Below, piece after piece: positions 5,236 through 64,000 of a DNA stretch of 64,000 bases. The stretch's first letter is position 1. Each line of letters starts with the position of its first letter. Under the pieces are notes generated by a model. The model did not search any database and was not told the origin of the DNA. It saw nothing but the letters and a program-made list of their open reading frames with translations. The translations under genes and the position numbers were made by a program. Source of the stretch: Chondrosia reniformis (lineage: Eukaryota > Porifera > Demospongiae > Chondrillida > Chondrillidae); NCBI GenBank assembly GCA_947172415.1, contig OX359202.1:5628899-5692898 (forward strand), written 5' to 3'.

Positions 5236-5284
5236 AACCGACAACGCCCTTTATAGGCTGGTCCAGCAGGTCACATGAAATAAA
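5236..5284. promoter_or_regulatory. Compact divergent promoter, START gene / TTC9C-like gene
   Basis: Only 49 bp separate the two start codons, so both 5' UTRs and the core promoter must overlap or extend into coding sequence. It contains TATAAAG on the minus strand (5249-5255). AAAATGGCCG spans the TTC9C ATG (5282-5291) and matches a YY1-type core found again at 27310-27319 and 35770-35779. Confidence 0.6.
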
Positions 5285-30300: not shown

Positions 30301-33300
30301 AATTTACACTATATACAGTATATAGAGTTAAGAGAGTTAATTCTGAAGTCACTGGTAAAGAAGCACTATCTGAAACTGGATCAGGTCCAGTAGGAGAAGC
30401 TGAAAGACATTGAGAACAAATCTATTAATCTACATTTTGATTCATCATGATAATAGGTCAGTGTGACCTACCACTGGAAGATATTACATCAACCAGCCAA
30501 TTATTCACTTTTTCATCATCATAGCCTTTGCAGAGGCTTACTACACCCAACTCCCTAAACTGTACTTCTTATATATGTACGTACTATACATACTTAGGTA
30601 CTAGTTTGAAAGGGCTAATGTCAGGTGTTTCTAACCTGGCTGATAACAAGGGATGTCCTCCTGAGCTACCCAAAGAAAATCACCGACCTGTAACTTACGA
30701 ACCTGAAATCTCACACCTGCCAACAAGTGAGAGGAGATGACTAACATATTAAAGAAAAGTGTAAAAGAGCCAGGAAGCCATTTTGGTTGACCTGACAACT
30801 CTGTGTCTGACACTCATATACAGTGAGCAGTGGGTACGTATGTAGGAATATAAACATACCATATTTACTGAGTTCTTTTAATAGCACTCCACGAAACATG
30901 CTCTTTGTAGTAGTCTCCTGATTATCAATTATTAGGAGTATCTGGAACTTACCTACGTATGTTAACATAAAGCAAATATTCTTAGACTTACATACATAAG
31001 GATTCACAAAGATTAAGATCAAGAAAAAGACAAAGACTACGAGGGTCACTGATGAAGGGTGGAATTCCCAGAAACAGCTGTCTGGCCCAGTGGAGCAGAA
31101 GAACAAAGAAAAGACTCCTGTATCTTCGTCCAAAGCTCTCTCCAGGTTTAGTTCCCTATAGGCTTTCTTACAGAATAGTCTCCGCTTCCCATCAAGTGAA
31201 CTTTGGCTATGCCCATTAGCTCATTGCGATCCTCGGGAGACATGAGTTGGCAGGGGTAATATCCAGAGTTCACTGATGATGATATCAATGCTTTTAGATC
31301 AGCTTTAGATCTTAAAGTTCCCCTAGGACAACTTGCAGTTGAACATAGTTTAGTAGTAAAATACTAGTCAATTGTACAGTATCTACGTACATGCCTACCT
31401 GGATAAAGGGTGAACAAGGATCTGTCTGATGGTACTGGAGTCACTGGATGGTCTTGTGAGGAGCCCGTCTCACTGACACCACTTCCCCTCACCCCCTCTG
31501 AGGGGTCACTGACACCACTTCCCCTCACCCCCTCTGAGGGGCCACTGACACCACTTCCCCTCACCCCCTCTGAGGGGCCACTGACACCACTTCCCCTCAC
31601 CCCCTCTGAGGGGCCACTGACACCACTTCCCCTCACCCCCTCTGAGGGGTCACTGACACCACTTCCCCTCACTCCCTCTGAGGGGCCACTGACACCACTT
31701 CCCCTCACCCCATCTGAGGGGTCACTGACACCACTTCCCCTCACCCCATCTGAGGGGTCACTGACACCACTTCCCCTCACCCCATCTGAGGGGTCACTGA
31801 CACCACTTCCCCTCACCCCCTCTGAGGGGCCACTGACACCACTTCCCCTCACCCCCTCTGAGGGGTCACTGACACCACTTCCCCTCACCCCATCTGAGGG
31901 GTCACTGACACCACTTCCCCTCACCCCCTCTGAGGGGCCACTGACACCACTTCCCCTCACCCCCTCTGAGGGGCCACTGACACCACTTCCCCTCACCCCC
32001 TCTGAGGGGCCAATGGAGTAAGCCTTCTTCTTTCCCTTGGTACCAGCAGGTGGTACTGCCTTGCTCTTCTCTAAACCTTCCTTCATGTGGCTGCTCTTAT
32101 CTTCTTCCGGATACCGTTCTGAATCCTGGATGACCATTTTACGTTGTCTAGATGCAGCAGTAAGCCTTTCTACTAATGGCAGCGTACATAAATCCTCATC
32201 ACTGTCGCTCAGAACTACAGTTGTCTCCTCTCCCCTCTGCCATTCAGCGGTTGGCAGATCTAAATCCACTGCTCCCTTTCCAAGCAGTCCTTCTTGGGGA
32301 ACAGTTCCACCACTCTCTTCAGTATCCACACTTGTGAACTTGTCTGGCAGACCACTACACAGATCTACAGCATACTCATCTTGTATGTAAGCAAAGATGT
32401 ATTCATTGTGAGACTTCCTACAAATTTCAGGATAGGCAAGCAGTTACTAACTTTCCTTGGCATAGAATTACTTTAGAGTGACATACCTTGTTGAATCTAT
32501 TTTGTATCTAATTCCTGAAGATAACAAATCCTTCTGGAAGCATTTAGTAAGGTAATACACCTTTGCAGCTGTCACAGATAATATACATATTTTCAAATTG
32601 AATTTAAATATGTGAAAAAGAAACAATAAATGGATTTTTCACTCAAATCCAATCTTTACTAACTTACAGTCAAATGTGACAGCTGCTTTATCCTTCTTTA
32701 ACACACATTTTCCATCAGGATCAATGTACCAGTACTTTAAGGAGGAAGATGTCTGGGAATAAAGAGAGTGGACATCACCGGTGGCACATTCTACAGAGAG
32801 ATGGTCATCAACAACGGATTGGCTACATGTGGGAAGTGAGGAGCTGCTTGCTCTGCCATAATCTGTACAACTCTCAAGTCCTGAACTTGATGGTTGAGCA
32901 GCAGAAACTGTTTTCTGTGAAAAATGAGAAAATCTCGGAGAAGAATATGAATCTTCATCAGAGGAGCTATCTAGATCCACTATCAAGTCTTGTCTGCATG
33001 TTACTGTTTGATGGCTGGTTGACATTGAGCGAGAAGGCTCGGGTGATGAAATGGGTGATGAAGAAGAAGACGACTGTGCTTCTTCAGCTGAAATGTTGGA
33101 AGCCAACAGCCTCTTGGCCAGATCAACTCCTTTGTCACTGAGGGAATACCTACGTACAGGTACCACAGAATGGTTTGTGTAAAGATACATAATAGGTGCT
33201 GCTTATCTGCTTGTTATTATAAATATAATCACCACCAACAAAGACTAATTACTACTAAGGGGAAGGGAAACATGAATGGAGCATTGCTATGGCAACTATA

Positions 33301-35873: not shown

Positions 35874-38800
35874 ATGCCAGTCAGTTCAGGTAGTTCTCAG
35901 GAAGTCAAAAAATCGTGAGTTCTGATCTAATGCTAAGATCCATGCAGTGTTCGACTTGGTGTCCCTGTGTATTAGCGGTACTAAGAGGCCGGCAGCGTCG
36001 CAAGGAGGATTGAGCAAGCGGTAGGAACGATTACTTGTACTTGTGTAGTATGTTATTCTGTAAGCTGACTAGACATTTTCTGTTGTCTCTGTCAGGAATG
36101 ATTTGTTTTTGAAAGTAAAGTACCACAACGACCTTCCCGACGTACCGTTTGACCCCAAGTATCTGATGTATCCATTTGAAAGTAGCAGGTTAGAGACAAG
36201 AGAGTCTTTCAATGTGTATACCTTAGTAGTATGTTAAGTGTGCATCAGTCTCACATAGCCAGACTGCACTATCACTTCCATTTTGCTTTGAGAGGTAATC
36301 AGTTATTGTACAATAGTGCAAGCTATGCATATTGATGTATATTGTGTAGATATGAGCAGTATGTTCCAACCTCATTGGAGAGGAATTATAAACACGAATA
36401 CCTGACAGAGGCAGACTTGGGCGTCCTCATTGACCTCATTGTACCAGAGACTTATGCATTACCTGAAGGATCTGCTAGTAAGGCAGCGTAGTGTACTCCT
36501 CGACCATCCCCTGCCACTCTCCTCATCCCCTGCCGCTCTCCCCATCCCCTGCCGCTCTCCCCATCCCCTGCCACTCTCCCCATCCCCTGCCGCTCTCCCC
36601 ATCCCCTGCCACTCCCCCCATCCCCTGCCACTCTCCCCATCCCCTGCCACTCTCCCCATCCCCTGCCACTCTCCCCATCCCCTGCCACTCTCCCCATCCC
36701 CTGCCACTCTCCCCATCCCCTGCCACTCTCCCCATCCCCTGCCACTCTCCCCATCCCCTGCCACTCTCCCCATCCCCTGCCACTCTCCCCATCCCCTGCC
36801 ACTCTCCCCATCCCCTGCCACTCTCCCCATCCCCTGCCACTCTCCCCATCCCCTGCCACTCTCCCCATCCCCTGCCACTCTCCCCATCCCCTGCCACTCT
36901 CCCCATCCCCTGCCACTCTCCCCATCCCCTGCCACTCTCCCCATCCCCTGCCGCTCTCCCCATCCCCTGCCACTCTCCCCATCCCCTGCCACTCTCCCCA
37001 TCCCCTGCCACTCTCCCCATCCCCTGCCACTCTCCTCATCCCCTGCCGCTCTCCCCATCCCCTGCCACTCTCCCCATCCCCTGCCACTCTCCCCATCCCC
37101 TGCCACTCTCCCCATCCCCTGCCACTCTCCCCAGTCCATGCCACTCTCAGTCAATGTGCACTTTTCTGTAGATTATTTTCTAATATTTTGTACATTATGA
37201 ATATCACAGAAAATAATACTATATGTTGCATACATACATACGTATGTCCTTGTAAAGGTCAAATGCATCCACTGGACGAAGCTCTGCTGGAGGAAGAGGT
37301 GGCAGAACAACCCAGGTCTAAGAGGTATGTACTTTTTGTGCAGGTTCGGGTCTATGTGACCCTGAGATGATACTATTCTATATCAGTAGTGCTACTCTAT
37401 GGAGGTGTTTCTCTTCCATTGCATTGTTATTCTTGCCTCTCCAGGGCTATCCAGCATGCAAAGAAGGTTTCCTGGCTGAGGAAGACTGAGTACATTGCAT
37501 CTGAGTATAATCGCAGTCATGCAAGCAGTGACATGGCAGAGACAACGTAAGTGAGGAGTATAACAATACTGCACATTGCACTTACAGTTGAGAGCTCTCG
37601 TCCATCTAGCTGTATTTACTGTGAGACTGTATTAACTATAATGTGTGTTTGTTGTATTTTTATTAAATTCATTGCTTAAAAATATTTTCGATTTCATCTT
37701 GTAATTGGTCAATCTTTCCTCCTCGCAAGTTACTATAAATTACTCCTTTTCACTATTTTACATGATTACAGTAAGTCTCTCTTGGGCTTCTTACAGCCAA
37801 AGACTCATCATAATTGTGTTCTGTGTTTCCTACAGTGTCGGCTACAGCGTGAAGAAGAAGCTTCAGGATCAAGACGCATACAAGGTACGAATAGGAAACC
37901 TTTGACCTTTGACCCTGATAGTAATATGGTGCAGATGTACATACGTATGTCTATACTGTGCTTACCTGCAGGACAGAGCTAGTCAGATAGCTGCCATTAC
38001 TGAATCCTTTGATCAGGCAAAGACACCAGTATGTTTGGTATTTGTATGGTAACTTTCAGTTTTATGTAAAACAGTTGTGGTTTTGCTATCTTTTGAATAT
38101 ACGTATTTAGTGGTCTCATTTCCAATTTATTATAGATTACTAAACACTACAGTAAGCCGGGAGTAGTTGCTGAAGAAATACTGCCACTCTTTCCTGATTT
38201 TGATGTGAGTATATGCTCCAATCCAATGTACGTATAAGATACACCCACTCTATTAAGGGGTTCAATTAAACATTAAATTAATTATGAACTTCAATAACAA
38301 AACTAAATAAAAGTATTTACACACAAATTATGGCAAAAAATAAACTGTCACTCAATTGACTGTAAATATGTAATAATATGGCAACTATAACAATAACACA
38401 ACATGCGAGGGGGTTATGAATTCTTTTATCATTTGGTATTTTATGTAACAGTGACACCATTCAGCAGTTGCCGTAGTGTTACCATGGTTACTGCAGTGAA
38501 ATTGTGGGTGTTGTAATCAGTGGTTCTCTTAATTGGTTTGCTCTTTTGAACAGATCCTCTTCACTATCACTGCCTGTATCTTCTGATCTGACTTCATTCT
38601 CAGTTTCGGACTCACAACTGCTTTCTTCTGCTCTGTTCAGTTCCAGATACACAGTGTTAACTCTACCAGTTGGACTACTGTCTCCTTCATCTTCATTACT
38701 TCTCTTAACTGACTTGACTTTTAGTAATCGCTTGATCCTTGAAACCAGAATAGTTACTTTTCTGATGAGCTTTCCACCAAGGGATGTGTATTCTAAAAAG

Positions 38801-46168: not shown

Positions 46169-46384
46169 CCTACTGACTAATATAGCCTATATAGCTACAT
46201 GCTCAAATAACTAGGTGTTTTAAATCACATACGTTTTTCAAAGAAAATGTTAATTTTGCAATTGCAACTAACCCCATGATGAACCAAATAATTACTATCA
46301 AAATACAGGAAGCATGTCCTAATAAAGACGAAACAGCTGTTTATGTGTTGACCATGATCAATCAGTGGCCAAGGGAAACTGGTT

Positions 46385-46690
46385 GCAAGGTTTGAAGCCA
46401 GTACTTAATGTCAGCATTCGCAGACATGCATATGTTTGAAACATTTCCAAAGAGTTTTAGAAGTTTCAATATAAATTTTCATTCATATTTGCCCTATCTC
46501 TTACCATACATTAACTTTGTATGATAGATTTTAATGTACATTAAGGGTCGTAACTCCGGTCCATCAGACAGCAAGATGTGAAGCCAATACTTGATGTCAA
46601 CATTCACAGACATGCATATGTTTGAAACATTTCCAAAGAGTTTTAGAAGTTTCAATATTAAATTTTATAGGTACATCACTCTCTCAATTC
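46385..46690. repeat. Diverged satellite monomers at the array edge
   Basis: Two degenerate units recognisable by AGCATTCGCAGACATGCATA, ATTTCCAAAGAGTTTTAGAAG and CATACATTAACTTTGTATG. They are less like each other and the main array than array units are, as expected at a satellite border. They begin about 215 bp after the PAF1 stop and 60 bp after its poly(A) signal. Confidence 0.8.
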
Positions 46691-46717
46691 TAAAATTTAA
46701 GTTAGGAATTGATCAGC

Positions 46718-47760
46718 CGGCCTAATTGTAATATCGATCATAGACATTAATATCGTACAGGCGATAAATATCAGTCCTCGCAATATATCTAATTTTCGGC
46801 ATCAAGAAAAGTCGCTTTCCTCCCTCCATTAAGATACATACTGGCTTTTATCCATTTGCCACAGTTTTGAGATGTATTGGAAATATTGCGTATGTGTGTA
46901 AAATTGCTTGGAACGATTCACTGGTCTGGAATTAAAGTGGAATAAATTGACGATTTCTCGAAAATAATTGGGATCAGAAAAGTCGTTCTCCTCGGCCCAT
47001 CAAGACACTTACAGGATTTTTTTCGCTTTTCCCAGTTTTCAGGTGAACCACTAATACTGCCTATGTCTTTAAACTTGCTTGAAACAATTCACTGATCTGG
47101 AAATAACGAGAAATATATTAAAAAAGGTCCCAACCACAACCGTTTTCTTTGGACAAAACTTCATATAAATAGAAGCGAAAAACCTTATATAGTAGGCCTA
47201 CCTGGACACATCTCTATGGTGGTTGCGGTTCCCATAGAGGTTGGTAGCGCTTAGACTCTGAAGCTGTCTCCTAATCGGTTGGTGCCATAGAGACGTGCTC
47301 ACCAATAATCCGGATTTCGGGGGGGTTCCACGTAATGTGGGATTGGCATCTGATATCTAAGGATTCATATGAGTCGGCCATATCGAGAAGAACTGGTTCT
47401 TCTCACGCAAGTGACACCCAAAGCTCAACTCGGCAGAGCGTTACCACCGATCCCGGCCTATGAGCGTCGTGGATGGTAGCGTTCGGTATGGTCCAACTTT
47501 TTTTCTTTGGAGTTTCGTTGGCTGTCGATTGACGAAATTTCTCTTTTACGAGATCCATATAAAATATATGGATAGATAGTACTTCAATAACAATCAAGTA
47601 CTACACAGTGCATATCCATATGTATAAAAATTGGAAAGTATTCTAGATTTTCAGATATAGTATGGAATTTCTGTCTTTATTATTATACCTTCTAACGGTC
47701 GGCCATATACAGTATTACGCAATTTTCTTTAACAAAAGAGTACACTAACTGTATAGTTCT
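46718..47760. repeat. Non-monomeric spacer of the satellite macro-repeat, copy 1
   Basis: About 1.05 kb unlike the 169-bp monomer. Left half: two diverged tandem copies of a ~172-bp unit (about 46800-46970 and 46973-47120), sharing AAAAGTCG, AGTTTT, TGCTTG and ATTCACTG(G/A)TCTGGA. Right half: a less AT-rich block with several hairpins, among them GAGAAGAAC-TG-GTTCTTCTC (47385-47404), CTCTATGG/CCATAGAG (47212-47239) and ATCCATATA-AAA-TATATGGAT near 47549-47570. It also holds a TATA-like CATATAAATAG (47162-47172) and an oligo-T run near 47499. Confidence 0.85.
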
Positions 47761-50700
47761 GTAACTCTATCAAATGGAGAGATATGAAGCTAAAACTTTT
47801 TGTAAGCATTCACAGATATCTATAGAACATGGACCATAGGGTTTTTGAAATTTTGAAGAAACTTAAAATTTGTCCAATCTCTCACCATACATTAACTTTG
47901 TATAGCAGATTTTAATGTACATTAATTATAAGGGTTGTAACTCCAACAAAAAGCAAGATGTGAAGCCAATACTTGAAGTCAGCATTCACAGACATGTATG
48001 AAACATTTCCAAAGAATTTTAGAAGTTTCAATTTTTGTTCATATTTGCCCTATCTCTCACCATACGCACATTAACTTTGTATGGCAGATTTTAATGTACA
48101 TTAAGGGTCGTAACTCCAACAAACACTTTGATATGAAGCTAATACTTGATATCAGCATTCACAGACATGTATGAAACATTTCCAAAGACTTTTAGAAGTT
48201 TCAATTTTTGTTCATATTTGCCCTATCCCTATACATACATTAACTTTGTATACCAAACTTTTATGTTCATTGAGGGCTGTCACTCTATCAAATAGAGAGA
48301 TATGAAGCTAACCCTTTGTGTCAGCATTCACAGACATCTATAGAGCATATCCAATGAGTTTTTGAAATTTTGATGAAACTTAAAATTTGACCTATCTCTC
48401 ACCATACATTAACTTCGTATACCAAACTTTAATGTTCATTCAGGGCTGTCACTTCATCAAATGGAGAGATATGAAGCTAAATCTTTGTGTAAGCATTCAC
48501 AGATATCTATAGAGCATATCCAATGAGTTTTTGAAATTTTGATGAAACTTAAAATTTGACCTATCTCTCACCATACATTAACTTTGTATAGCAGAATTTA
48601 ATGTTCATTGAGGGCTGTCACCCCATCAAATGGAGAAATATGAAGCTAATTCTTTGTGTAAGCATTCACAGACATCTATAGAGCATGTCCAATGGGTTTT
48701 TGGAATTTTGATGAAACTTAAAATTTGACCTATCTCTCACCATACATTAACTTTGTATAGCAGAATTTAATGTTCATTGAGGGCTGTCACTCCATCAAAT
48801 GGAGAGATATGAAGCTAATTCTTTGTGTCAGCATTCACAGACATCTATAGAGCATATCCAATGAGTTTTTGAAATTTTAATGAAACTTAAAATTTGCCCT
48901 ATCCCTATACATACATTACCTTTGTATACCAAACTTTTATGTTCATTGAGGGCTGTCACTCTATCAAATAGAGAGACATGAAGCTAACCCTTTGTGTAAG
49001 CATTCACAGACATCTATAGAGCATATCCAATGAGTTTTTGAAATTTTGATGAAACTTAAAATTTGACCTATCTCTCACCATACATTAACTTTGTATGCCA
49101 AAATTTAATGTTCATTGAGGGCTGTCACTCCATCAAATAGAGAGATATGAAGCTAATTCTTTGTGTAAGCATTCACAGACATCTATAGAGCATGTCCAAT
49201 GGGTTTTTGGAATTTTGATGAAACTTAAAATTTGACCTATATATCTCTCACCATACATTAACTTTGTATAGCAGAATTTAATGTACATTGAGGGCTGTTA
49301 CTCCATCAAATGGAGAGATATGAAGCTAAATCTTTGTGTAAGCATTCACAGACATCTATAGAGCATATCCAATGAGTTTTTGAAATTTTGATGAAACTTA
49401 AAATTTGACCTATCTCTCACCATACATTAACTTTGTATGCCAGAATTTAATGTTCATTGAGGGCTGTCACTCCATCAAATGGAGAGATATGAAGCTAATT
49501 CTTTGTGTCAGCATTCACAGCCATCTATAGAGCATATCCAATGAGTTTTTGAAATTTTAATGAAACTTAAAATTTGCCTTATCCCTATACATACATTAAC
49601 TTTGTATACCAAACTTTTATGTTCATTGAGGGCTGCCACTCTATCAAATAGAGAGATATGAAGCTAACCCTTTGTGTCAGCATTCACAGACATCTATAGA
49701 GCATATCCAATGAGTTTTTGAAATTTTGATGAAACTTAAAATTTGACCTATCTCTCACCATACATTAACTTTGTATAGCAGATTTTAATGTACATTAATT
49801 ATAAGGGTTGTAACTCCAACAAAAAGCAAGATGTGAAGCCAATACTTGAAGTCAGCATTCACAGACATGTATGAAACATTTCCAAAGAGTCTTAGAAGTT
49901 TCAATTTTTGTTCATATTTGCCCTATCCCTATACATACATTAACTTTGTATACCAAACTTTTATGTTCATTGAGGGCTGTCACTCTATCAAATAGAGAGA
50001 TATGAAGCTAACCCTTTGTGTCAGCATTCACAGACATCTATAGAGCATATCCAATGAGTTTTTGAAATTTTGATGAAACTTAAAATTTGACCTATCTCTC
50101 ACCATACATTAACTTTGTATAGCAGAATTTAATGTTCATTGAGGGTTGTCACCCCATCAAATGGAGAAATATGAAGCTAATTCTTTGTGTCAGCATTCAC
50201 AGACATCTATAGAGCATGTCCAATGGGTTTTTGGAATTTTGATGAAACTTAAAATTTGACCTATCTCTCACCATACATTAACTTTGTATAGCAGAATTTA
50301 ATGTTCATTGAGGGCTGTCACTCCATCAAATGGAGAGATATGAAGCTAATTCTTTGTGTCAGCATTCACAGACATCTATAGAGCATATCCAATGAGGTTT
50401 TGAAATTTTAATGAAACTTAAAATTTGCCCTATCCCTATACATACATTACCTTTGTATACCAAACTTTTATGTTCATTGAGGGCTGTCACTCTATCAAAT
50501 AGAGAGACATGAAGCTAACCCTTTGTGTAAGCATTCACAGACATCTATAGAGCATATCCAATGAGTTTTTGAAATTTTGATGAAACTTAAAATTTGACCT
50601 ATCTCTCACCATACATTAACTTTGTATGCCAGAATTTAATGTTCATTGAGGGCTGTCACTCCATCAAATAGAGAGATATGAAGCTAAATCTTTGTGTAAG

Positions 50701-53700
50701 CATTCACAGACATCTATAGAGCATGTCCAATGGGTTTTTGGAATTTTGATGAAACTTAAAATTTGACCTATATATCTCTCACCATACATTAACTTTGTAT
50801 AGCAGAATTTAATGTTCATTAAGGGTTGTCACTCCATCAAATGGAGAGATATGAAGCTAATTCTTTGTGTCAGCATTCACAGACATCTATAGAGCATGTC
50901 CAATGGGTTTTTGGAATTTTGATGAAACTTAAAATTTGACCTATCACTCACCATACATTAACTTTGTATAGCAGAATTTAATGTACATTGAGGGCTGTTA
51001 CTCCATCAAATGGAGAGATATGAAGCTAAATCTTTGTGTAAGCATTCACAGACATCTATAGAGCATATCCAATGAGTTTTTGAAATTTTGATGAAACTTA
51101 AAATTTGACCTATCTCTCACCATACATTAACTTTGTATGCCAGAATTTAATGTTCATTGAGGGCTGTCACTCCATCAAATGGAGAGATATGAAGCTAATT
51201 CTTTGTGTCAGCATTCACAGCCATCTATAGAGCATATCCAATGAGTTTTTGAAATTTTAATGAAACTTAAAATTTGCCTTATCCCTATACATACATTAAC
51301 TTTGTATACCAAACTTTTATGTTCATTGAGGGCTGCCACTCTATCAAATAGAGAGATATGAAGCTAACCCTTTGTGTCAGCATTCACAGACATCTATAGA
51401 GCATATCCAATGAGTTTTTGAAATTTTGATGAAACTTAAAATTTGACCTATCTCTCACCATACATTAACTTTGTATAGCAGATTTTAATGTACATTAATT
51501 ATAAGGGTTGTAACTCCAACAAAAAGCAAGATGTGAAGCCAATACTTGAAGTCAGCATTCACAGACATGTATGAAACATTTCCAAAGAATTTTAGAAGTT
51601 TCAATTTTTGTTCATATTTGCCCTATCTCTCACCATACGCACATTAACTTTGTATGGCAGATTTTAATGTACATTAAGGGTCGTAACTCCAACAAACACT
51701 TTGATATGAAGCTAATACTTGATATCAGCATTCACAGACATGTATGAAACATTTCCAAAGACTTTTAGAAGTTTCAATTTTTGTTCATATTTGCCCTATC
51801 CCTATACATACATTAACTTTGTATACCAAACTTTTATGTTCATTGAGGGCTGTCACTCTATCAAATAGAGAGATATGAAGCTAACCCTTTGTGTCAGCAT
51901 TCACAGACATCTATAGAGCATATCCAATGAGTTTTTGAAATTTTGATGAAACTTAAAATTTGACCTATCTCTCACCATACATTAACTTCGTATACCAAAC
52001 TTTAATGTTCATTCAGGGCTGTCACTTCATCAAATGGAGAGATATGAAGCTAAATCTTTGTGTAAGCATTCACAGATATCTATAGAGCATATCCAATGAG
52101 TTTTTGAAATTTTGATGAAACTTAAAATTTGACCTATCTCTCACCATACATTAACTTTGTATAGCAGAATTTAATGTTCATTGAGGGCTGTCACCCCATC
52201 AAATGGAGAAATATGAAGCTAATTCTTTGTGTCAGCATTCACAGACATCTATAGAGCATGTCCAATGGGTTTTTGGAATTTTGATGAAACTTAAAATTTG
52301 ACCTATCTCTCACCATACATTAACTTTGTATAGCAGAATTTAATGTTCATTGAGGGCTGTCACTCCATCAAATGGAGAGATATGAAGCTAATTCTTTGTG
52401 TCAGCATTCACAGACATCTATAGAGCATATCCAATGAGTTTTTGAAATTTTAATGAAACTTAAAATTTGCCCTATCCCTATACATACATTACCTTTGTAT
52501 AGCAGAATTTAATGTACATTGAGGGCTGTTACTCCATCAAATGGAGGGATATGAAGCTAAATCTTTGTGTAAGCATTCACAGATATCTATAGAGCATATC
52601 CAATGAGTTTTTGAAATTTTGATGAAACTTAAAATTTGACCTATCTCTCACTATACATTAACTTTGTATAGCAGAATTTAATGTTCATTGAGGGCTGTCA
52701 CTCCATCAAATGGAGAGATATGAAGCTAATTCTTTGTGTCAGCATTCACAGACATCTATAGAGCATATCCAATGAGTTTTTGAAATTTTAATGAAACTTA
52801 AACTTGGCCTATCCCTATACATACATTAACTTTGTATACCAAACTTTTATGTTCATTGAGGGCTGTCACTCTATCAAATAGAGAGACATGAAGCTAACCC
52901 TTTGTGTAAGCATTCACAGACATCTATAGAGCATATCCAATGAGTTTTTGAAATTTTGATGAAACTTAAAATTTGACCTATCTCTCACCATACATTAACT
53001 TTGTATGCCAGAATTTAATGTTCATTGAGGGCTGTCACTCTATCAAATAGAGAGATATGAAGCTAAATCTTTGTGTAAGCATTCACAGACATCTATAGAG
53101 CATGTCCAATGGGTTTTTGGAATTTTGATGAAACTTAAAATTTGACCTATATATCTCTCACCATACATTAACTTTGTATAGCAGAATTTAATGTTCATTG
53201 AGGGTTGTCACTCCATCAAATGGAGAGATATGAAGCTAATTCTTTGTGTCAGCATTCACAGACATCTATAGAGCATGTCCAATGGGTTTTTGGAATTTTG
53301 ATGAAACTTAAAATTTGACCTATCTCTCACCATACATTAACTTTGTATAGCAGAATTTAATGTACATTGAGGGCTGTTACTCCATCAAATGGAGAGATAT
53401 GAAGCTAAATCTTTGTGTAAGCATTCACAGACATCTATAGAGCATATCCAATGAGTTTTTGAAATTTTGATGAAACTTAAAATTTGACCTATCTCTCACC
53501 ATACATTAACTTTGTATAGCAGAATTTAATGTTCATTGAGGGCTGTCACTCCATCAAATGGAGAGATATGAAGCTAATTCTTTGTGTCAGCATTCACAGC
53601 CATCTATAGAGCATATCCAATGAGTTTTTGAAATTTTGATGAAACTTAAAATTTGCCTTATCCCTATACATACATTAACTTTGTATACCAAACTTTTATG

Positions 53701-55970
53701 TTCATTGAGGGCTGTCACTCTATCAAATAGAGAGATATGAAGCTAACCCTTTGTGTCAGCATTCACAGACATCTATAGAGCATATCCAATGAGTTTTTGA
53801 AATTTTGATGAAACTTAAAATTTGACCTATCTCTCACCATACATTAACTTTGTATAGCAGAATTTAATGTTCATTGAGGGCTGTCACTCCATCAAATGGA
53901 GAGATATGAAGCTAATTCTTTGTGTAAGCATTCACAGATATCTATAGAGCATGTCCAATGGGTTTTTGGAATTTTGATGAAACTTTAAATTTGACCTATC
54001 TCTCACCATACATTAACTTTGTATACCAGAATTTAATGTTCATTGAGGGCTGTTACTCTATCAAATGGAGAGATATGAAGCTAAATCTTTGTGTAAGCAT
54101 TCACAGACATCTATAGAGCATATCCAATGAGTTTTTGAAATTTTGATGAAACTTAAAATTTGACCAATCTCTCACCATACATTAACTTTGTATAGCAGAA
54201 TTTAATGTTCATTGAGGGCTGTCACTCCATCAAATGGAGAGATATGAAGCTAATTCTTTGTGTCAGCATTCACAGACATCTATAGAGCATATCCAATGAG
54301 TTTTTGAAATTTTAATGAAACTTAAAATTTGCCCTATCCCTATACATACATTAACTTTGTATACAAAACTTTTATGTTCATTGAGGGCTGTCACTCTATC
54401 AAATAGAGAGACATGAAGCTAACCCTTTGTGTAAGCATTCACAGACATCTATAGAGCATATCCAATGAGTTTTTGAAATTTTGATGAAACTTAAAATTTG
54501 CCCTATCCCTATACATACATTAACTTTGTATACCAAACTTTTATGTTCATTGAGGGCTGTCACTCTATCAAATAGAGAGATATGAAGCTAACCCTTTGTG
54601 TCAGCATTCACAGACATTTATAGAGCATATCCAATGAGTTTTTGAAATTTTGATGAAACTTAAAATTTGACCTATCTCTCACCATACATTAACTTTGTAT
54701 AGCAGAATTTAATGTTCATTGAGGGCTGTCACTCCATCAAATGGAGAAATATGAAGCTAATTCTTTGTGTCAGCATTCACAGACATCTATAGAGCATGTC
54801 CAATGGGTTTTTGGAATTTTGATGAAACTTAAAATTTGACCTATCTCTCACCATACATTAACTTTGTATACCAGAATTTAATGTTCATTGAGGGCTGTTA
54901 CTCTATCAAATGGAGAGATATGAAGCTAAATCTTTGTGTAAGCATTCACAGACATCTATAGAGCATATCCAATGAGTTTTTGAAATTTTGATGAAACTTA
55001 AAATTTGACCAATCTCTCACCATACATTAACTTTGTATAGCAGAATTTAATGTTCATTGAGGGCTGTCACTCCATCAAATGGAGAGATATGAAGCTAATT
55101 CTTTGTGTCAGCATTCACAGACATCTATAGAGCATATCCAATGAGTTTTTGAAATTTTAATGAAACTTAAAATTTGCCCTATCCCTATACATACATTAAC
55201 TTTGTATACAAAACTTTTATGTTCATTGAGGGCTGTCACTCTATCAAATAGAGAGACATGAAGCTAACCCTTTGTGTAAGCATTCACAGACATCTATAGA
55301 GCATATCCAATGAGTTTTTGAAATTTTGATGAAACTTAAAATTTGCCCTATCCCTATACATACATTAACTTTGTATACCAAACTTTTATGTTCATTGAGG
55401 GCTGTCACTCTATCAAATAGAGAGATATGAAGCTAACCCTTTGTGTCAGCATTCACAGACATTTATAGAGCATATCCAATGAGTTTTTGAAATTTTGATG
55501 AAACTTAAAATTTGACCTATCTCTCACCATACATTAACTTTGTATAGCAGAATTTTATGTTCATTGAGGGCTGTCACTCCATCAAATGGAGAGATAAGAA
55601 GCTAATTCTTTGTGTAAGCATTCACAGATATCTATAGAGCATATCCAATGAGTTTTTGAAATTTTGATGAAACTTAAAATTTGACCAATCTCTCACCATA
55701 CATTAACTTTGTATAGCAGAATTTAATGTTCATTGAGGGCTGTCACTCCATCAAATGGAGAGATATGAAGCTAATTCTTTGTGTCAGCATTCACAGACAT
55801 CTATAGAGCATGTCCAATGGGTTTTTGGAATTTTGATGAAACTTAAAATTTGACCTATCTCTCACCATACATTAACTTTGTATAGCAGAATTTAATGTAC
55901 ATTGAGGGCTGTTACTCTATCAAATGGAGAGATATGAAGCTAAATCTTTGTGTCAGCATTCACAGATATC
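47761..55970. repeat. Satellite array 1, ~169-bp monomer
   Basis: About 48 head-to-tail monomers; one monomer carries AGCATTCACAGACATCTATA, CCAATGAGTTTTTGAAATTT, CTCTCACCATACATTAACTT and GTTCATTGAGGGCTGTCACT. At least three monomer types alternate: a 'CTCCATCAAATGGAG' type, a 'CTCTATCAAATAGAG...AACCCTTTGTG' type, and a divergent 'TGTATGAAACATTTCCAAAG' type. Ordered blocks recur: AAGGGTTGTAACTCCAAC at 47930, 49803 and 51503. No open frame of note on either strand. Confidence 0.95.
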
Positions 55971-55979
55971 TAATAAAAC

Positions 55980-57021
55980 GGCCTAGTTGAAATATCGATC
56001 ATAGACATTAATATCGTACAGGCGATAAATATCGGACCTCTCACTATCTCTAGTTTTCTGTATCATGAAAAGTCGCTCTCCTCCCTCCACCAAGACACAT
56101 ACAGGCTTTTATCCATTTGCCACAGTTTTGAGATGTATTGGAAATATTGCGTATGTGTGTAAAATTGCTTGGAACGATTCACTGGTCTGGAATTAAAGTG
56201 GAATAAATTGACGATTTCTCGAAAATAATTGGGATCAGAAAAGTCGTTCTCCTCGGCCCATCAAGACACTTACAGGATTTTTTTCGCTTTTCCCAGTTTT
56301 CAGGTGAACCACTAATACTGCCTATGTCTTTAAACTTGCTTGAAACAATTCACTGATCTGGAAATAACGAGAAATATATTAAAAAAGGTCCCAACCACAA
56401 CCGTTTTCTTTGGACAAAACTTCATATAAATAGAAGCGAAAAACCTTATATAGTAGGCCTACCTGGACACATCTCTATGGTGGTTGCGGTTCCCATAGAG
56501 GTTGGTAGCGCTTAGACTCTGAAGCTGTCTCCTAATCGGTTGGTGCCATAGAGACGTGCTCACCAATAATCCGGATTTCGGGGGGGTTCCACGTAATGTG
56601 GGATTGGCATCTGATATCTAAGGATTCATATGAGTCGGCCATATCGAGAAGAACTGGTTCTTCTCACGCAAGTGACACCCAAAGCTCAACTCGGCAGAGC
56701 GTTACCACCGATCCCGGCCTATGAGCGTCGTGGATGGTAGCGTTCGGTATGGTCCAACTTTTTTTCTTTGGAGTTTCGTTGGCTGTCGATTGACGAAATT
56801 TCTCTTTTACGAGATCCATATAAAATATATGGATAGATAGTACTTCAATAACAATCAAGTACTACACAGTGCATATCCATATGTATAAAAATTGGAAAGT
56901 ATTCTAGATTTTCAGATATAGTATGGAATTTCTGTCTTTATTATTATACCTTCTAACGGTCGGCCATATACAGTATTACGCAATTTTCTTTAACAAAAGA
57001 GTACACTAACTGTATAGTTCT
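55980..57021. repeat. Non-monomeric spacer, copy 2
   Basis: Same element as 46718-47760, displaced by 9261 bp. From 56104 rightwards I find no difference from copy 1 in the stretches compared; the first ~125 bp are clearly diverged from copy 1. Confidence 0.92.
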
Positions 57022-60000
57022 GTAACTCTATCAAATGGAGAGATATGAAGCTAAAACTTTTTGTAAGCATTCACAGATATCTATAGAACATGGACCATAG
57101 GGTTTTTGAAATTTTGAAGAAACTTAAAATTTGTCCAATCTCTCACCATACATTAACTTTGTATAGCAGATTTTAATGTACATTAATTATAAGGGTTGTA
57201 ACTCCAACAAAAAGCAAGATGTGAAGCCAATACTTGAAGTCAGCATTCACAGACATGTATGAAACATTTCCAAAGAATTTTAGAAGTTTCAATTTTTGTT
57301 CATATTTGCCCTATCTCTCACCATACGCACATTAACTTTGTATGGCAGATTTTAATGTACATTAAGGGTCGTAACTCCAACAAACACTTTGATATGAAGC
57401 TAATACTTGATATCAGCATTCACAGACATGTATGAAACATTTCCAAAGACTTTTAGAAGTTTCAATTTTTGTTCATATTTGCCCTATCCCTATACATACA
57501 TTAACTTTGTATACCAAACTTTTATGTTCATTGAGGGCTGTCACTCTATCAAATAGAGAGATATGAAGCTAACCCTTTGTGTCAGCATTCACAGACATCT
57601 ATAGAGCATATCCAATGAGTTTTTGAAATTTTGATGAAACTTAAAATTTGACCTATCTCTCACCATACATTAACTTCGTATACCAAACTTTAATGTTCAT
57701 TCAGGGCTGTCACTTCATCAAATGGAGAGATATGAAGCTAAATCTTTGTGTAAGCATTCACAGATATCTATAGAGCATATCCAATGAGTTTTTGAAATTT
57801 TGATGAAACTTAAAATTTGACCTATCTCTCACCATACATTAACTTTGTATAGCAGAATTTAATGTTCATTGAGGGCTGTCACCCCATCAAATGGAGAAAT
57901 ATGAAGCTAATTCTTTGTGTAAGCATTCACAGACATCTATAGAGCATGTCCAATGGGTTTTTGGAATTTTGATGAAACTTAAAATTTGACCTATCTCTCA
58001 CCATACATTAACTTTGTATAGCAGAATTTAATGTTCATTGAGGGCTGTCACTCCATCAAATGGAGAGATATGAAGCTAATTCTTTGTGTCAGCATTCACA
58101 GACATCTATAGAGCATATCCAATGAGTTTTTGAAATTTTAATGAAACTTAAAATTTGCCCTATCCCTATACATACATTACCTTTGTATACCAAACTTTTA
58201 TGTTCATTGAGGGCTGTCACTCTATCAAATAGAGAGACATGAAGCTAACCCTTTGTGTAAGCATTCACAGACATCTATAGAGCATATCCAATGAGTTTTT
58301 GAAATTTTGATGAAACTTAAAATTTGACCTATCTCTCACCATACATTAACTTTGTATGCCAAAATTTAATGTTCATTGAGGGCTGTCACTCCATCAAATA
58401 GAGAGATATGAAGCTAATTCTTTGTGTAAGCATTCACAGACATCTATAGAGCATGTCCAATGGGTTTTTGGAATTTTGATGAAACTTAAAATTTGACCTA
58501 TATATCTCTCACCATACATTAACTTTGTATAGCAGAATTTAATGTACATTGAGGGCTGTTACTCCATCAAATGGAGAGATATGAAGCTAAATCTTTGTGT
58601 AAGCATTCACAGACATCTATAGAGCATATCCAATGAGTTTTTGAAATTTTGATGAAACTTAAAATTTGACCTATCTCTCACCATACATTAACTTTGTATG
58701 CCAGAATTTAATGTTCATTGAGGGCTGTCACTCCATCAAATGGAGAGATATGAAGCTAATTCTTTGTGTCAGCATTCACAGCCATCTATAGAGCATATCC
58801 AATGAGTTTTTGAAATTTTAATGAAACTTAAAATTTGCCTTATCCCTATACATACATTAACTTTGTATACCAAACTTTTATGTTCATTGAGGGCTGCCAC
58901 TCTATCAAATAGAGAGATATGAAGCTAACCCTTTGTGTCAGCATTCACAGACATCTATAGAGCATATCCAATGAGTTTTTGAAATTTTGATGAAACTTAA
59001 AATTTGACCTATCTCTCACCATACATTAACTTTGTATAGCAGATTTTAATGTACATTAATTATAAGGGTTGTAACTCCAACAAAAAGCAAGATGTGAAGC
59101 CAATACTTGAAGTCAGCATTCACAGACATGTATGAAACATTTCCAAAGAGTCTTAGAAGTTTCAATTTTTGTTCATATTTGCCCTATCCCTATACATACA
59201 TTAACTTTGTATACCAAACTTTTATGTTCATTGAGGGCTGTCACTCTATCAAATAGAGAGATATGAAGCTAACCCTTTGTGTCAGCATTCACAGACATCT
59301 ATAGAGCATATCCAATGAGTTTTTGAAATTTTGATGAAACTTAAAATTTGACCTATCTCTCACCATACATTAACTTTGTATAGCAGAATTTAATGTTCAT
59401 TGAGGGTTGTCACCCCATCAAATGGAGAAATATGAAGCTAATTCTTTGTGTCAGCATTCACAGACATCTATAGAGCATGTCCAATGGGTTTTTGGAATTT
59501 TGATGAAACTTAAAATTTGACCTATCTCTCACCATACATTAACTTTGTATAGCAGAATTTAATGTTCATTGAGGGCTGTCACTCCATCAAATGGAGAGAT
59601 ATGAAGCTAATTCTTTGTGTCAGCATTCACAGACATCTATAGAGCATATCCAATGAGGTTTTGAAATTTTAATGAAACTTAAAATTTGCCCTATCCCTAT
59701 ACATACATTACCTTTGTATACCAAACTTTTATGTTCATTGAGGGCTGTCACTCTATCAAATAGAGAGACATGAAGCTAACCCTTTGTGTAAGCATTCACA
59801 GACATCTATAGAGCATATCCAATGAGTTTTTGAAATTTTGATGAAACTTAAAATTTGACCTATCTCTCACCATACATTAACTTTGTATGCCAGAATTTAA
59901 TGTTCATTGAGGGCTGTCACTCCATCAAATAGAGAGATATGAAGCTAAATCTTTGTGTAAGCATTCACAGACATCTATAGAGCATGTCCAATGGGTTTTT

Positions 60001-63000
60001 GGAATTTTGATGAAACTTAAAATTTGACCTATATATCTCTCACCATACATTAACTTTGTATAGCAGAATTTAATGTTCATTAAGGGTTGTCACTCCATCA
60101 AATGGAGAGATATGAAGCTAATTCTTTGTGTCAGCATTCACAGACATCTATAGAGCATGTCCAATGGGTTTTTGGAATTTTGATGAAACTTAAAATTTGA
60201 CCTATCACTCACCATACATTAACTTTGTATAGCAGAATTTAATGTACATTGAGGGCTGTTACTCCATCAAATGGAGAGATATGAAGCTAAATCTTTGTGT
60301 AAGCATTCACAGACATCTATAGAGCATATCCAATGAGTTTTTGAAATTTTGATGAAACTTAAAATTTGACCTATCTCTCACCATACATTAACTTTGTATG
60401 CCAGAATTTAATGTTCATTGAGGGCTGTCACTCCATCAAATGGAGAGATATGAAGCTAATTCTTTGTGTCAGCATTCACAGCCATCTATAGAGCATATCC
60501 AATGAGTTTTTGAAATTTTAATGAAACTTAAAATTTGCCTTATCCCTATACATACATTAACTTTGTATACCAAACTTTTATGTTCATTGAGGGCTGCCAC
60601 TCTATCAAATAGAGAGATATGAAGCTAACCCTTTGTGTCAGCATTCACAGACATCTATAGAGCATATCCAATGAGTTTTTGAAATTTTGATGAAACTTAA
60701 AATTTGACCTATCTCTCACCATACATTAACTTTGTATAGCAGATTTTAATGTACATTAATTATAAGGGTTGTAACTCCAACAAAAAGCAAGATGTGAAGC
60801 CAATACTTGAAGTCAGCATTCACAGACATGTATGAAACATTTCCAAAGAATTTTAGAAGTTTCAATTTTTGTTCATATTTGCCCTATCTCTCACCATACG
60901 CACATTAACTTTGTATGGCAGATTTTAATGTACATTAAGGGTCGTAACTCCAACAAACACTTTGATATGAAGCTAATACTTGATATCAGCATTCACAGAC
61001 ATGTATGAAACATTTCCAAAGACTTTTAGAAGTTTCAATTTTTGTTCATATTTGCCCTATCCCTATACATACATTAACTTTGTATACCAAACTTTTATGT
61101 TCATTGAGGGCTGTCACTCTATCAAATAGAGAGATATGAAGCTAACCCTTTGTGTCAGCATTCACAGACATCTATAGAGCATATCCAATGAGTTTTTGAA
61201 ATTTTGATGAAACTTAAAATTTGACCTATCTCTCACCATACATTAACTTCGTATACCAAACTTTAATGTTCATTCAGGGCTGTCACTTCATCAAATGGAG
61301 AGATATGAAGCTAAATCTTTGTGTAAGCATTCACAGATATCTATAGAGCATATCCAATGAGTTTTTGAAATTTTGATGAAACTTAAAATTTGACCTATCT
61401 CTCACCATACATTAACTTTGTATAGCAGAATTTAATGTTCATTGAGGGTTGTCACCCCATCAAATGGAGAAATATGAAGCTAATTCTTTGTGTCAGCATT
61501 CACAGACATCTATAGAGCATGTCCAATGGGTTTTTGGAATTTTGATGAAACTTAAAATTTGACCTATCTCTCACCATACATTAACTTTGTATAGCAGAAT
61601 TTAATGTTCATTGAGGGCTGTCACTCCATCAAATGGAGAGATATGAAGCTAATTCTTTGTGTCAGCATTCACAGACATCTATAGAGCATATCCAATGAGG
61701 TTTTGAAATTTTAATGAAACTTAAAATTTGCCCTATCCCTATACATACATTACCTTTGTATACCAAACTTTTATGTTCATTGAGGGCTGTCACTCTATCA
61801 AATAGAGAGACATGAAGCTAACCCTTTGTGTAAGCATTCACAGACATCTATAGAGCATATCCAATGAGTTTTTGAAATTTTGATGAAACTTAAAATTTGA
61901 CCTATCTCTCACCATACATTAACTTTGTATGCCAGAATTTAATGTTCATTGAGGGCTGTCACTCCATCAAATAGAGAGATATGAAGCTAAATCTTTGTGT
62001 AAGCATTCACAGACATCTATAGAGCATGTCCAATGGGTTTTTGGAATTTTGATGAAACTTAAAATTTGACCTATATATCTCTCACCATACATTAACTTTG
62101 TATAGCAGAATTTAATGTTCATTAAGGGTTGTCACTCCATCAAATGGAGAGATATGAAGCTAATTCTTTGTGTCAGCATTCACAGACATCTATAGAGCAT
62201 GTCCAATGGGTTTTTGGAATTTTGATGAAACTTAAAATTTGACCTATCACTCACCATACATTAACTTTGTATAGCAGAATTTAATGTACATTGAGGGCTG
62301 TTACTCCATCAAATGGAGAGATATGAAGCTAAATCTTTGTGTAAGCATTCACAGACATCTATAGAGCATATCCAATGAGTTTTTGAAATTTTGATGAAAC
62401 TTAAAATTTGACCTATCTCTCACCATACATTAACTTTGTATGCCAGAATTTAATGTTCATTGAGGGCTGTCACTCCATCAAATGGAGAGATATGAAGCTA
62501 ATTCTTTGTGTCAGCATTCACAGCCATCTATAGAGCATATCCAATGAGTTTTTGAAATTTTAATGAAACTTAAAATTTGCCTTATCCCTATACATACATT
62601 AACTTTGTATACCAAACTTTTATGTTCATTGAGGGCTGCCACTCTATCAAATAGAGAGATATGAAGCTAACCCTTTGTGTCAGCATTCACAGACATCTAT
62701 AGAGCATATCCAATGAGTTTTTGAAATTTTGATGAAACTTAAAATTTGACCTATCTCTCACCATACATTAACTTTGTATAGCAGATTTTAATGTACATTA
62801 ATTATAAGGGTTGTAACTCCAACAAAAAGCAAGATGTGAAGCCAATACTTGAAGTCAGCATTCACAGACATGTATGAAACATTTCCAAAGAATTTTAGAA
62901 GTTTCAATTTTTGTTCATATTTGCCCTATCTCTCACCATACGCACATTAACTTTGTATGGCAGATTTTAATGTACATTAAGGGTCGTAACTCCAACAAAC

Positions 63001-64000
63001 ACTTTGATATGAAGCTAATACTTGATATCAGCATTCACAGACATGTATGAAACATTTCCAAAGACTTTTAGAAGTTTCAATTTTTGTTCATATTTGCCCT
63101 ATCCCTATACATACATTAACTTTGTATACCAAACTTTTATGTTCATTGAGGGCTGTCACTCTATCAAATAGAGAGATATGAAGCTAACCCTTTGTGTCAG
63201 CATTCACAGACATCTATAGAGCATATCCAATGAGTTTTTGAAATTTTGATGAAACTTAAAATTTGACCTATCTCTCACCATACATTAACTTCGTATACCA
63301 AACTTTAATGTTCATTCAGGGCTGTCACTTCATCAAATGGAGAGATATGAAGCTAAATCTTTGTGTAAGCATTCACAGATATCTATAGAGCATATCCAAT
63401 GAGTTTTTGAAATTTTGATGAAACTTAAAATTTGACCTATCTCTCACCATACATTAACTTTGTATAGCAGAATTTAATGTTCATTGAGGGCTGTCACCCC
63501 ATCAAATGGAGAAATATGAAGCTAATTCTTTGTGTCAGCATTCACAGACATCTATAGAGCATGTCCAATGGGTTTTTGGAATTTTGATGAAACTTAAAAT
63601 TTGACCTATCTCTCACCATACATTAACTTTGTATAGCAGAATTTAATGTTCATTGAGGGCTGTCACTCCATCAAATGGAGAGATATGAAGCTAATTCTTT
63701 GTGTCAGCATTCACAGACATCTATAGAGCATATCCAATGAGTTTTTGAAATTTTAATGAAACTTAAAATTTGCCCTATCCCTATACATACATTACCTTTG
63801 TATAGCAGAATTTAATGTACATTGAGGGCTGTTACTCCATCAAATGGAGGGATATGAAGCTAAATCTTTGTGTAAGCATTCACAGATATCTATAGAGCAT
63901 ATCCAATGAGTTTTTGAAATTTTGATGAAACTTAAAATTTGACCTATCTCTCACTATACATTAACTTTGTATAGCAGAATTTAATGTTCATTGAGGGCTG
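57022..64000. repeat. Satellite array 2, continues past the window
   Basis: Repeats array 1 in the same monomer order at +9261 up to about 60.9 kb. Then an extra block of about 2042 bp is present, after which the order matches array 1 at +11303 to the right edge (the marker AAGGGTTGTAACTCCAAC falls at 57191, 59064, 60764 and 62806). The array is open-ended on the right. Confidence 0.95.

What the first reader, a model, noticed from the sequence alone, without database searches (positions are those of the whole stretch)
46843..64000. Satellite with three nested levels: ~169-bp monomer, ~1.7-2.0-kb blocks, 9.26-kb macro-repeat
The whole segment 46843-56103 (spacer plus array) is repeated from 56104 with an exact 9261-bp offset and no difference in the stretches I compared. 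The monomers inside one copy differ clearly from one another. That is the signature of higher-order repeats: copying in large blocks, recently. The nucleosome-scale monomer, ordered monomer types and a diverged edge resemble centromeric or pericentromeric satellites, which I am not aware of having been characterised in sponges.
Basis: partly seen in the sequence, partly recalled or inferred. Interest (0 to 1): 0.75.

Follow-up and report, generated by a model that had tools for sequence, protein, structure and literature searches.

The report
Sponge RNA gene family with satellite spacers
The repeat found in this sponge chromosome is not a centromere-like satellite on its own but the spacer DNA between copies of an unidentified, about 305-letter RNA gene that is present roughly 750 times, nearly identical, across the sponge's genome.

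Summary
The repeat is real: 169-bp monomers and exact large-block copies. The 9261-bp offset is exact only over 46843-52187. The second copy carries an extra 2042-bp block, and a third unit lies 11303 bp further on, outside the window. The centromere reading is not supported. The "spacer" holds the key feature: a ~305-nt block (47193-47497) that is almost invariant while its flanks diverge. One pair of clusters differs at 0 of 304 core sites and 163 of 449 flank sites. The genome, matching Chondrosia reniformis, has 751 copies of a core 34-mer and 739 of a 166-mer, each at up to 3 mismatches. Upstream sits ACCACAANNNTTT, the element seen at -55/-56 in the 7 U1 and 6 U2 loci found, then a TATA-like box. 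The block ends in T7, like U6, SRP and 5S here and unlike U1/U2. No Rfam family reaches threshold. Best reading: a large dispersed family of a new RNA polymerase III, snRNA-type non-coding RNA gene, with the satellite as intergenic spacer. Expression and function are not shown.

The parts
46385..46718 (+). left edge of the cluster: diverged satellite monomers
   Evidence: matches of about 72-85% to inner monomers begin at 46385; the 1 kb to the left shares nothing with the other flanks compared
46719..47758 (+). gene unit 1 (1040 bp); further units at 55980 and, outside the window, 67283
46798..47119 (+). diverged direct duplication of about 150 bp upstream of the promoter (46798-46948 and 46970-47119)
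   Evidence: 74% identity, E 4e-14
47133..47139 (+). PSE-like element ACCACAA (followed by NNNTTT)
   Evidence: 60 nt before the first invariant base in 17 of 17 distinct upstream sequences; same word at -55/-56 in 7 of 7 U1 and 6 of 6 U2 loci found
47164..47172 (+). TATA box TATAAATAG, 29 nt before the first invariant base
   Evidence: 364 genome places with exact ATAAATAG-N20-TAGGCCT
47193..47497 (+). near-invariant core, predicted 305-nt non-coding RNA (copy 1)
   Evidence: no Rfam match
47498..47504 (+). T7 run, predicted Pol III terminator
   Evidence: compared with U6, SRP, 5S, U1, U2
47759..55979 (+). satellite array 1 (169-bp monomers), intergenic spacer
55980..57019 (+). gene unit 2 (98.5% identical to unit 1)
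56454..56758 (+). predicted RNA, copy 2 (same sequence, offset 9261)
   Evidence: inside the 5345-bp exact repeat
57020..64000 (+). satellite array 2, runs on outside the window to the third gene unit; holds an extra 2042-bp block (61339-63490 copies 59297-61448)

Best explanation
The locus is one of many clusters of an unidentified, multi-copy small RNA gene. Each unit has an snRNA-type promoter (an element shared with the sponge's U1 and U2 genes, then a TATA-like box), a ~305-nt transcript and a T-run terminator, so it is most likely made by RNA polymerase III. The 169-bp satellite is the intergenic spacer, amplified and reshuffled by unequal exchange; this also duplicates whole gene-plus-array units, giving the exact multi-kilobase copies. 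The transcribed part stays nearly identical because the RNA is needed and defective copies are removed, helped by gene conversion. Shown: structure, copy number, conservation contrast, promoter and terminator likeness. Inferred: transcription, polymerase, RNA function, cause of the homogeneity, and how clusters spread.
For: Core invariance with sharp edges: in 39 distinct aligned units, 10 of 14 20-base bins of 47201-47480 have 0 variable columns (at most 3), against 13 or more in every bin from 46701 to 47160; bins after 47480 have 5-30. Clusters L043 and L044: core 0/304 substitutions, flanks 80/148 + 24/70 + 59/231. Copy number: 751 (34-mer) and 739 (166-mer) at up to 3 mismatches, reversed-pattern controls 0; 50 of the 67 C1 copies listed carry the exact 166-mer. 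Promoter: ACCACAA at -60 in 17/17 distinct upstream sequences of three divergent types; same word at -55/-56 in 7/7 U1 and 6/6 U2 loci; background 9 in 92,000 strand-positions of window 1-46000. Terminator: run of 5 or more T at the 3' end in 4/4 Pol III loci examined (U6, SRP, two 5S) and here, in 0/13 U1/U2 loci; no internal TTTT. Folding of 47193-47501: z -2.56, 0 of 100 shuffles as stable. The first 100 of 2958 places of a monomer 20-mer lie in three gene clusters.
Against: No expression data. The element lies 60 nt before the first invariant base, against -55/-56 in U1/U2. The U6 loci (L039, L040) and the SRP locus lack it even at one mismatch, so the one classical PSE-driven Pol III gene tested does not share it. 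The 13 U1/U2 upstreams are not all independent (L048 and L053 show the same sequence; L049/L052 and L056/L059 are near-identical). The box is TTTAAATAG or TTAAAATAG in 6 of 17 distinct upstreams, and 4 of 7 U1 and 2 of 6 U2 loci also have TATAA, so TATA does not separate the polymerases. Folding is not decisive: 47200-47499 gives z -1.66 (9 of 200 shuffles as stable) and its minus strand z -1.65 (15 of 200). Too little variation for a covariation test. Most aligned units were fetched for likeness to the window, and some are the same place fetched twice.
Confidence: 0.8

Rival explanations
1. Centromeric or pericentromeric higher-order-repeat satellite; the core would be an embedded passenger.
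For: 169-bp monomer, exact large-block copies.
Against: 20 clusters among the 67 copies listed for one chromosome, spread from end to end, both orientations; monomers reversed relative to the gene in L041 and L043; no regular monomer periodicity; the core is far more conserved than satellite and flanks.
Confidence: 0.04
2. A selfish mobile element: a non-autonomous transposon with internal tandem repeats, whose core is its replicating part.
For: Dispersed on many chromosomes, both strands, clusters and singletons.
Against: Of nine flank stretches compared, five (both ends of the window cluster, L041 on both sides, L042 left) share nothing with any other; matches among the other four fall in satellite or unit sequence. 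Between the divergent types the promoter region and downstream flank are co-inherited but 19-55% different while the core is not, so recent spread of the core alone does not fit; no A box found. Target duplications of a few bases were not excluded.
Confidence: 0.07
3. The core is kept identical not by selection but by transcript- or cDNA-templated gene conversion, so the RNA may have no cellular function.
For: Homogeneity edges coincide with the predicted transcript ends.
Against: Needs a mechanism that I do not know to be shown at this scale in animals; the ACCACAA element and its spacing are also kept, which conversion of the transcript would not explain.
Confidence: 0.08
4. A spliced-leader RNA of the sponge, multi-copy as such genes often are.
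For: Promoter element shared with U1/U2 and high copy number; a trans-spliced leader of about 37 bp is reported for a glass sponge (PMC10282587, passages seen).
Against: No Sm site in the 305-nt core and a T-run end; much longer than the spliced-leader RNAs I recall.
Confidence: 0.04

Closest known systems
Type-3 (PSE + TATA) RNA polymerase III genes: U6, 7SK, RNase P/MRP RNA
   Same: PSE-like element, TATA-like box near -29, T-run end, size like 7SK or RNase P RNA (class and sizes recalled; U6 TATA and T-run seen)
   Different: no Rfam match; hundreds of copies, against 2 U6 and 1 SRP match among scored candidates here; this sponge's U6 lacks the shared element
Tandem 5S rRNA genes
   Same: Pol III-type end, tandem copies, uniform gene with variable spacer (the last recalled)
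   Different: 5S exists separately here in ~224-bp units on C14 (47 scored of 2317 candidates, a lower bound); the new gene is longer, dispersed in many clusters, with a satellite array as spacer
rDNA intergenic spacers with subrepeats
   Same: short repeats amplified between conserved genes (recalled)
   Different: about 1-kb unit with a small RNA; spacing within C1 clusters 1454-25956 bp, 9261 and 11303 bp here
Centromeric higher-order-repeat satellites
   Same: monomer length, recent block duplication
   Different: many small clusters per chromosome, a gene-like unit inside the arrays

Membership tests
snRNA-type RNA polymerase III gene | PSE shared with the organism's snRNA genes at about -55 to -60 | tested here: met
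   17/17 distinct upstreams; 13/13 U1/U2 loci found. The U6 and SRP loci lack it even at 1 mismatch
snRNA-type RNA polymerase III gene | TATA box near -30 | tested here: met
   of 17 distinct upstreams 11 have TATAAATAG, 5 TTTAAATAG, 1 TTAAAATAG at the same place; not discriminating, since 4 of 7 U1 and 2 of 6 U2 loci also have TATAA
snRNA-type RNA polymerase III gene | oligo-T terminator at the RNA end, none inside | tested here: met
   T7 at 47498-47504; no TTTT in the 305 nt
snRNA-type RNA polymerase III gene | actual transcription by Pol III | not testable with these tools
   no RNA or ChIP data at hand
Known RNA families of Rfam (among them 5S, SRP, U6, U1, U2, RNase P, MRP, 7SK) | match to the Rfam covariance model | tested here: not met
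   0 matches at E up to 10 on 47160-47520 and 0 at gathering in the window. One search lists three chance-level matches near by (E 2.0-2.7, all far below gathering), none inside 47193-47497. U1, U2, U6, 5S and SRP models detect their loci here (those loci were fetched with the same models)
7SK RNA | 5' hairpin with paired GAUC motifs (recalled) | tested here: not met
   one GATC in the core, at position 257
Spliced-leader RNA | Sm-binding site | tested here: not met
   no RAU3-6GR in the core
Spliced-leader RNA | leader found on mRNA 5' ends | not testable with these tools
   no cDNA at hand
Centromeric satellite | one main location per chromosome | tested here: not met
   20 clusters among 67 listed copies on C1
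Centromeric satellite | CENP-A occupancy | not testable with these tools
   needs ChIP
SINE or other retroposon | internal A/B-box promoter, copies without upstream homology | tested here: not met
   no A box; five B-box-like stretches only at up to 2 mismatches; upstream element and box shared by the three types read
DNA transposon or Helitron with internal repeats | common termini and target duplications | tested here: inconclusive
   no shared outer sequence beyond satellite or unit among nine flank stretches; short target duplications and empty sites not tested

The most novel reading that the evidence does not exclude
A previously undescribed abundant RNA of sponges: a ~305-nt Pol III transcript from a promoter with the U1/U2-type element and a TATA box, encoded by about 750 nearly identical genes, and therefore probably the core of a high-demand ribonucleoprotein without a known counterpart.
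Probability: 0.55. Interest if true: 0.8.

Novelty: new variant of a known kind. Interest (0 to 1): 0.62.

Why it matters
If it is transcribed, this is a new small-RNA family with very high gene dosage in an early-branching animal, and the comparison yields a candidate PSE for sponge snRNA genes. It shows how satellite DNA can arise as gene spacer rather than centromere DNA, and it is a clean case for studying how hundreds of dispersed gene copies stay nearly identical while their flanks drift.

Tried and rejected
Rfam gave nothing for the core: 0 at gathering over the window, 0 up to E 10 on 47160-47520. One search (46300-48100, E up to 5) listed SNORD27, mir-981 and snR63 at E 2.0-2.7, far below gathering and outside the core; I take them as chance. 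Exact 25-26-mers of the core were absent from the GTDB genome contigs and one of them from the IMG/VR viral contigs, so no relative from another sponge could be compared. A 201-nt exact pattern with the window's own letters hit only 15 places. The reason is a base at core index 166 that most other fetched units do not share; a 166-mer that stops before it gave 739 at up to 3 mismatches. Protein coding was considered and dropped: the longest stop-free stretch is 80 codons, on the minus strand, and variants with a 2-nt insertion or 5-nt deletion would break a frame. Assembly duplication was not tested against reads; the 2042-bp difference and the genome-wide recurrence speak against a pure artefact. 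Literature searches: (two returned no paper). Nothing on this repeat or RNA was seen in those listings, and PMC12181767 has no 'satellite' or 'centromer' in its main text (find only).

Full report
Observation. The array is real. Tandem Repeats Finder gives a 169-bp monomer from 47759 to the window end, and the commonest repeat offsets include 9261, 2042, 1700 and 169 bp and combinations. Exact identity at 9261 bp holds for 46843-52187 (5345 bp) and then stops. From 50036 the identity runs on at offset 11303 for 6767 bp, because copy 2 contains an extra 2042-bp duplication. With the adjoining 9.5 kb (L054) the cluster is seen to end at 68832 in window coordinates, with three units of about 1040 bp at 46719, 55980 and 67283. 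Of 98 full monomers 35 are distinct; apart from lags 43 and 53, which fit the macro-copies, there is no monomer-level periodicity up to lag 59. So there is recent block duplication, but no fixed 9.26-kb higher-order repeat.

Host. The genome holds 117,379,552 bases in 15 contigs. I name the species on that match only.

The spacer is the key. The 915 bp at 46843-47757 recur at 97-100% in 40 of the 41 matches scored, on eight contigs; the count is a lower bound. I found 52 units in the loci then held, some being the same place fetched twice, and aligned the 39 distinct complete ones, most of them fetched for likeness to the window. Of the 14 bins of 20 columns between 47201 and 47480, 10 have no variable column and the rest 1-3. 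From 46701 to 47160 every bin has 13 or more, and bins after 47480 have 5-30. In more distant clusters (L041, L043, L044, L055) the flanks diverge strongly, and in L041 and L043 the monomers run opposite to the gene. Between L043 and L044 the core has 0 of 304 substitutions while flanks have 80/148 (with 64 gap columns, so the outermost stretch is barely alignable), 24/70 and 59/231. Between the window and L043 the core has 2/304 and flanks 34/143, 19/70 and 43/226. Close relatives such as L042, L037 and L023 differ from the window by 0-6% in the flanks and 1-2 of 304 in the core, so they show less contrast. Of 53 units examined for exact core form, 3 could not be parsed. The other 50, again with repeats of the same place, show 11 forms, differing by a few substitutions, T-run length, a 2-nt insertion (10 units) or a 5-nt deletion (3 units).

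Copy number and layout. A 34-mer of the core occurs 751 times and a 166-mer 739 times, each at up to 3 mismatches; the reversed-pattern controls are 0. The tool lists only the first 100 places of each. On C1 it lists 67 exact 34-mers in 20 clusters (gap under 30 kb), median spacing 3195 bp, 3 clusters of mixed strand, 48 of 67 within 2 Mb of an end; 50 of the 67 also have the exact 166-mer. A monomer 20-mer occurs 2958 times, and the first 100 places fall in three of these clusters; where the other 2858 lie was not seen. The 20-mer is expected in about 40% of monomers (product of column frequencies), which suggests very roughly 7,000 monomers.

Promoter and terminator. Every distinct upstream sequence read (17 of 17) has ACCACAA 60 nt before the first invariant base, followed by NNNTTT. 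A box at 29 nt before it is TATAAATAG in 11, TTTAAATAG in 5 and TTAAAATAG in 1. In the same genome 7 of 7 U1 and 6 of 6 U2 loci found have ACCACAANNNTTT with the word at -55/-56; a few of these upstreams are duplicates or near-duplicates of one another. In window 1-46000 the word occurs 9 times on both strands together. One U1 locus (L062) shares CAACCACAACCGTTT with the new gene. Against this, the two U6 loci and the SRP locus lack the word even at one mismatch, and TATAA is also present in 4 of 7 U1 and 2 of 6 U2 loci, so the box does not tell the polymerase. The 3' end does. A run of 5 or more T at the end is present in U6, SRP and two 5S loci (4 of 4), absent in 13 of 13 U1/U2 loci, and present here as T7. 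No TTTT lies inside the 305 nt.

Identity. No Rfam family reaches its threshold in the window and none scores even at E 10 on the core; three chance-level matches near by are outside it. The same library recognises U1, U2, U6, 5S and SRP loci of this genome, which were fetched with those models. Genome searches gave 1 SRP, 2 U6, 6 U2, 7 U1 and 47 5S matches. These are counts of scored candidates and so lower bounds, above all for 5S, where 47 of 2317 were scored. RNase P, MRP and 7SK genes were not searched for genome-wide. No Sm site, telomere template or box C was found in the core. Folding gives limited support: z -2.56 for 47193-47501, but -1.66 for 47200-47499 and -1.65 for the opposite strand of the latter.

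Mechanism. Most likely each unit makes a Pol III snRNA-type RNA; demand for the RNA and gene conversion keep hundreds of copies alike; unequal exchange in the satellite spacer drives tandem growth and the exact copies here. The first step is supported by sequence layout only; the second and third are inferred. A transposon origin is less likely because promoter region and flanks are co-inherited and diverged between types, and outer flanks share nothing beyond satellite or unit sequence.

Limits. One genome, no expression data, no relatives from other sponges, biased sampling of units, and position listings restricted to the first 100 places.

Noticed in passing
L056-L062, L048-L053 (upstream of U1 and U2): All 13 U1/U2 loci found carry ACCACAANNNTTT with the word at -55/-56, a candidate proximal sequence element for this sponge's snRNA genes; the U6 loci L039 and L040 lack it.
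   Followed up: partly
G000:C14:1745529-1752807 and 1836227-1840148: Two clusters of 5S rRNA genes with about 224-bp spacing.
   Followed up: no
window 28321-29464, 36504-37148, 31471-32012, 16594-17140: Several long minisatellites, among them a G-rich 7-bp repeat of about 158 copies.
   Followed up: no
window 2768-2838, minus strand: ARAGORN calls a tRNA-Sec(tca); Rfam at gathering threshold does not support it.
   Followed up: no
window 46798-47119: A diverged direct duplication of about 150 bp (74%) just upstream of the promoter in the gene unit.
   Followed up: partly
L054, about 5207-5727 (just right of the cluster, outside the window): A short-period tandem array (about 27-bp steps) beyond the cluster end.
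   Followed up: no
C1, listed copies: 48 of 67 listed copies lie within 2 Mb of a chromosome end, which hints at an outer-chromosome bias; not tested on other chromosomes.
   Followed up: no
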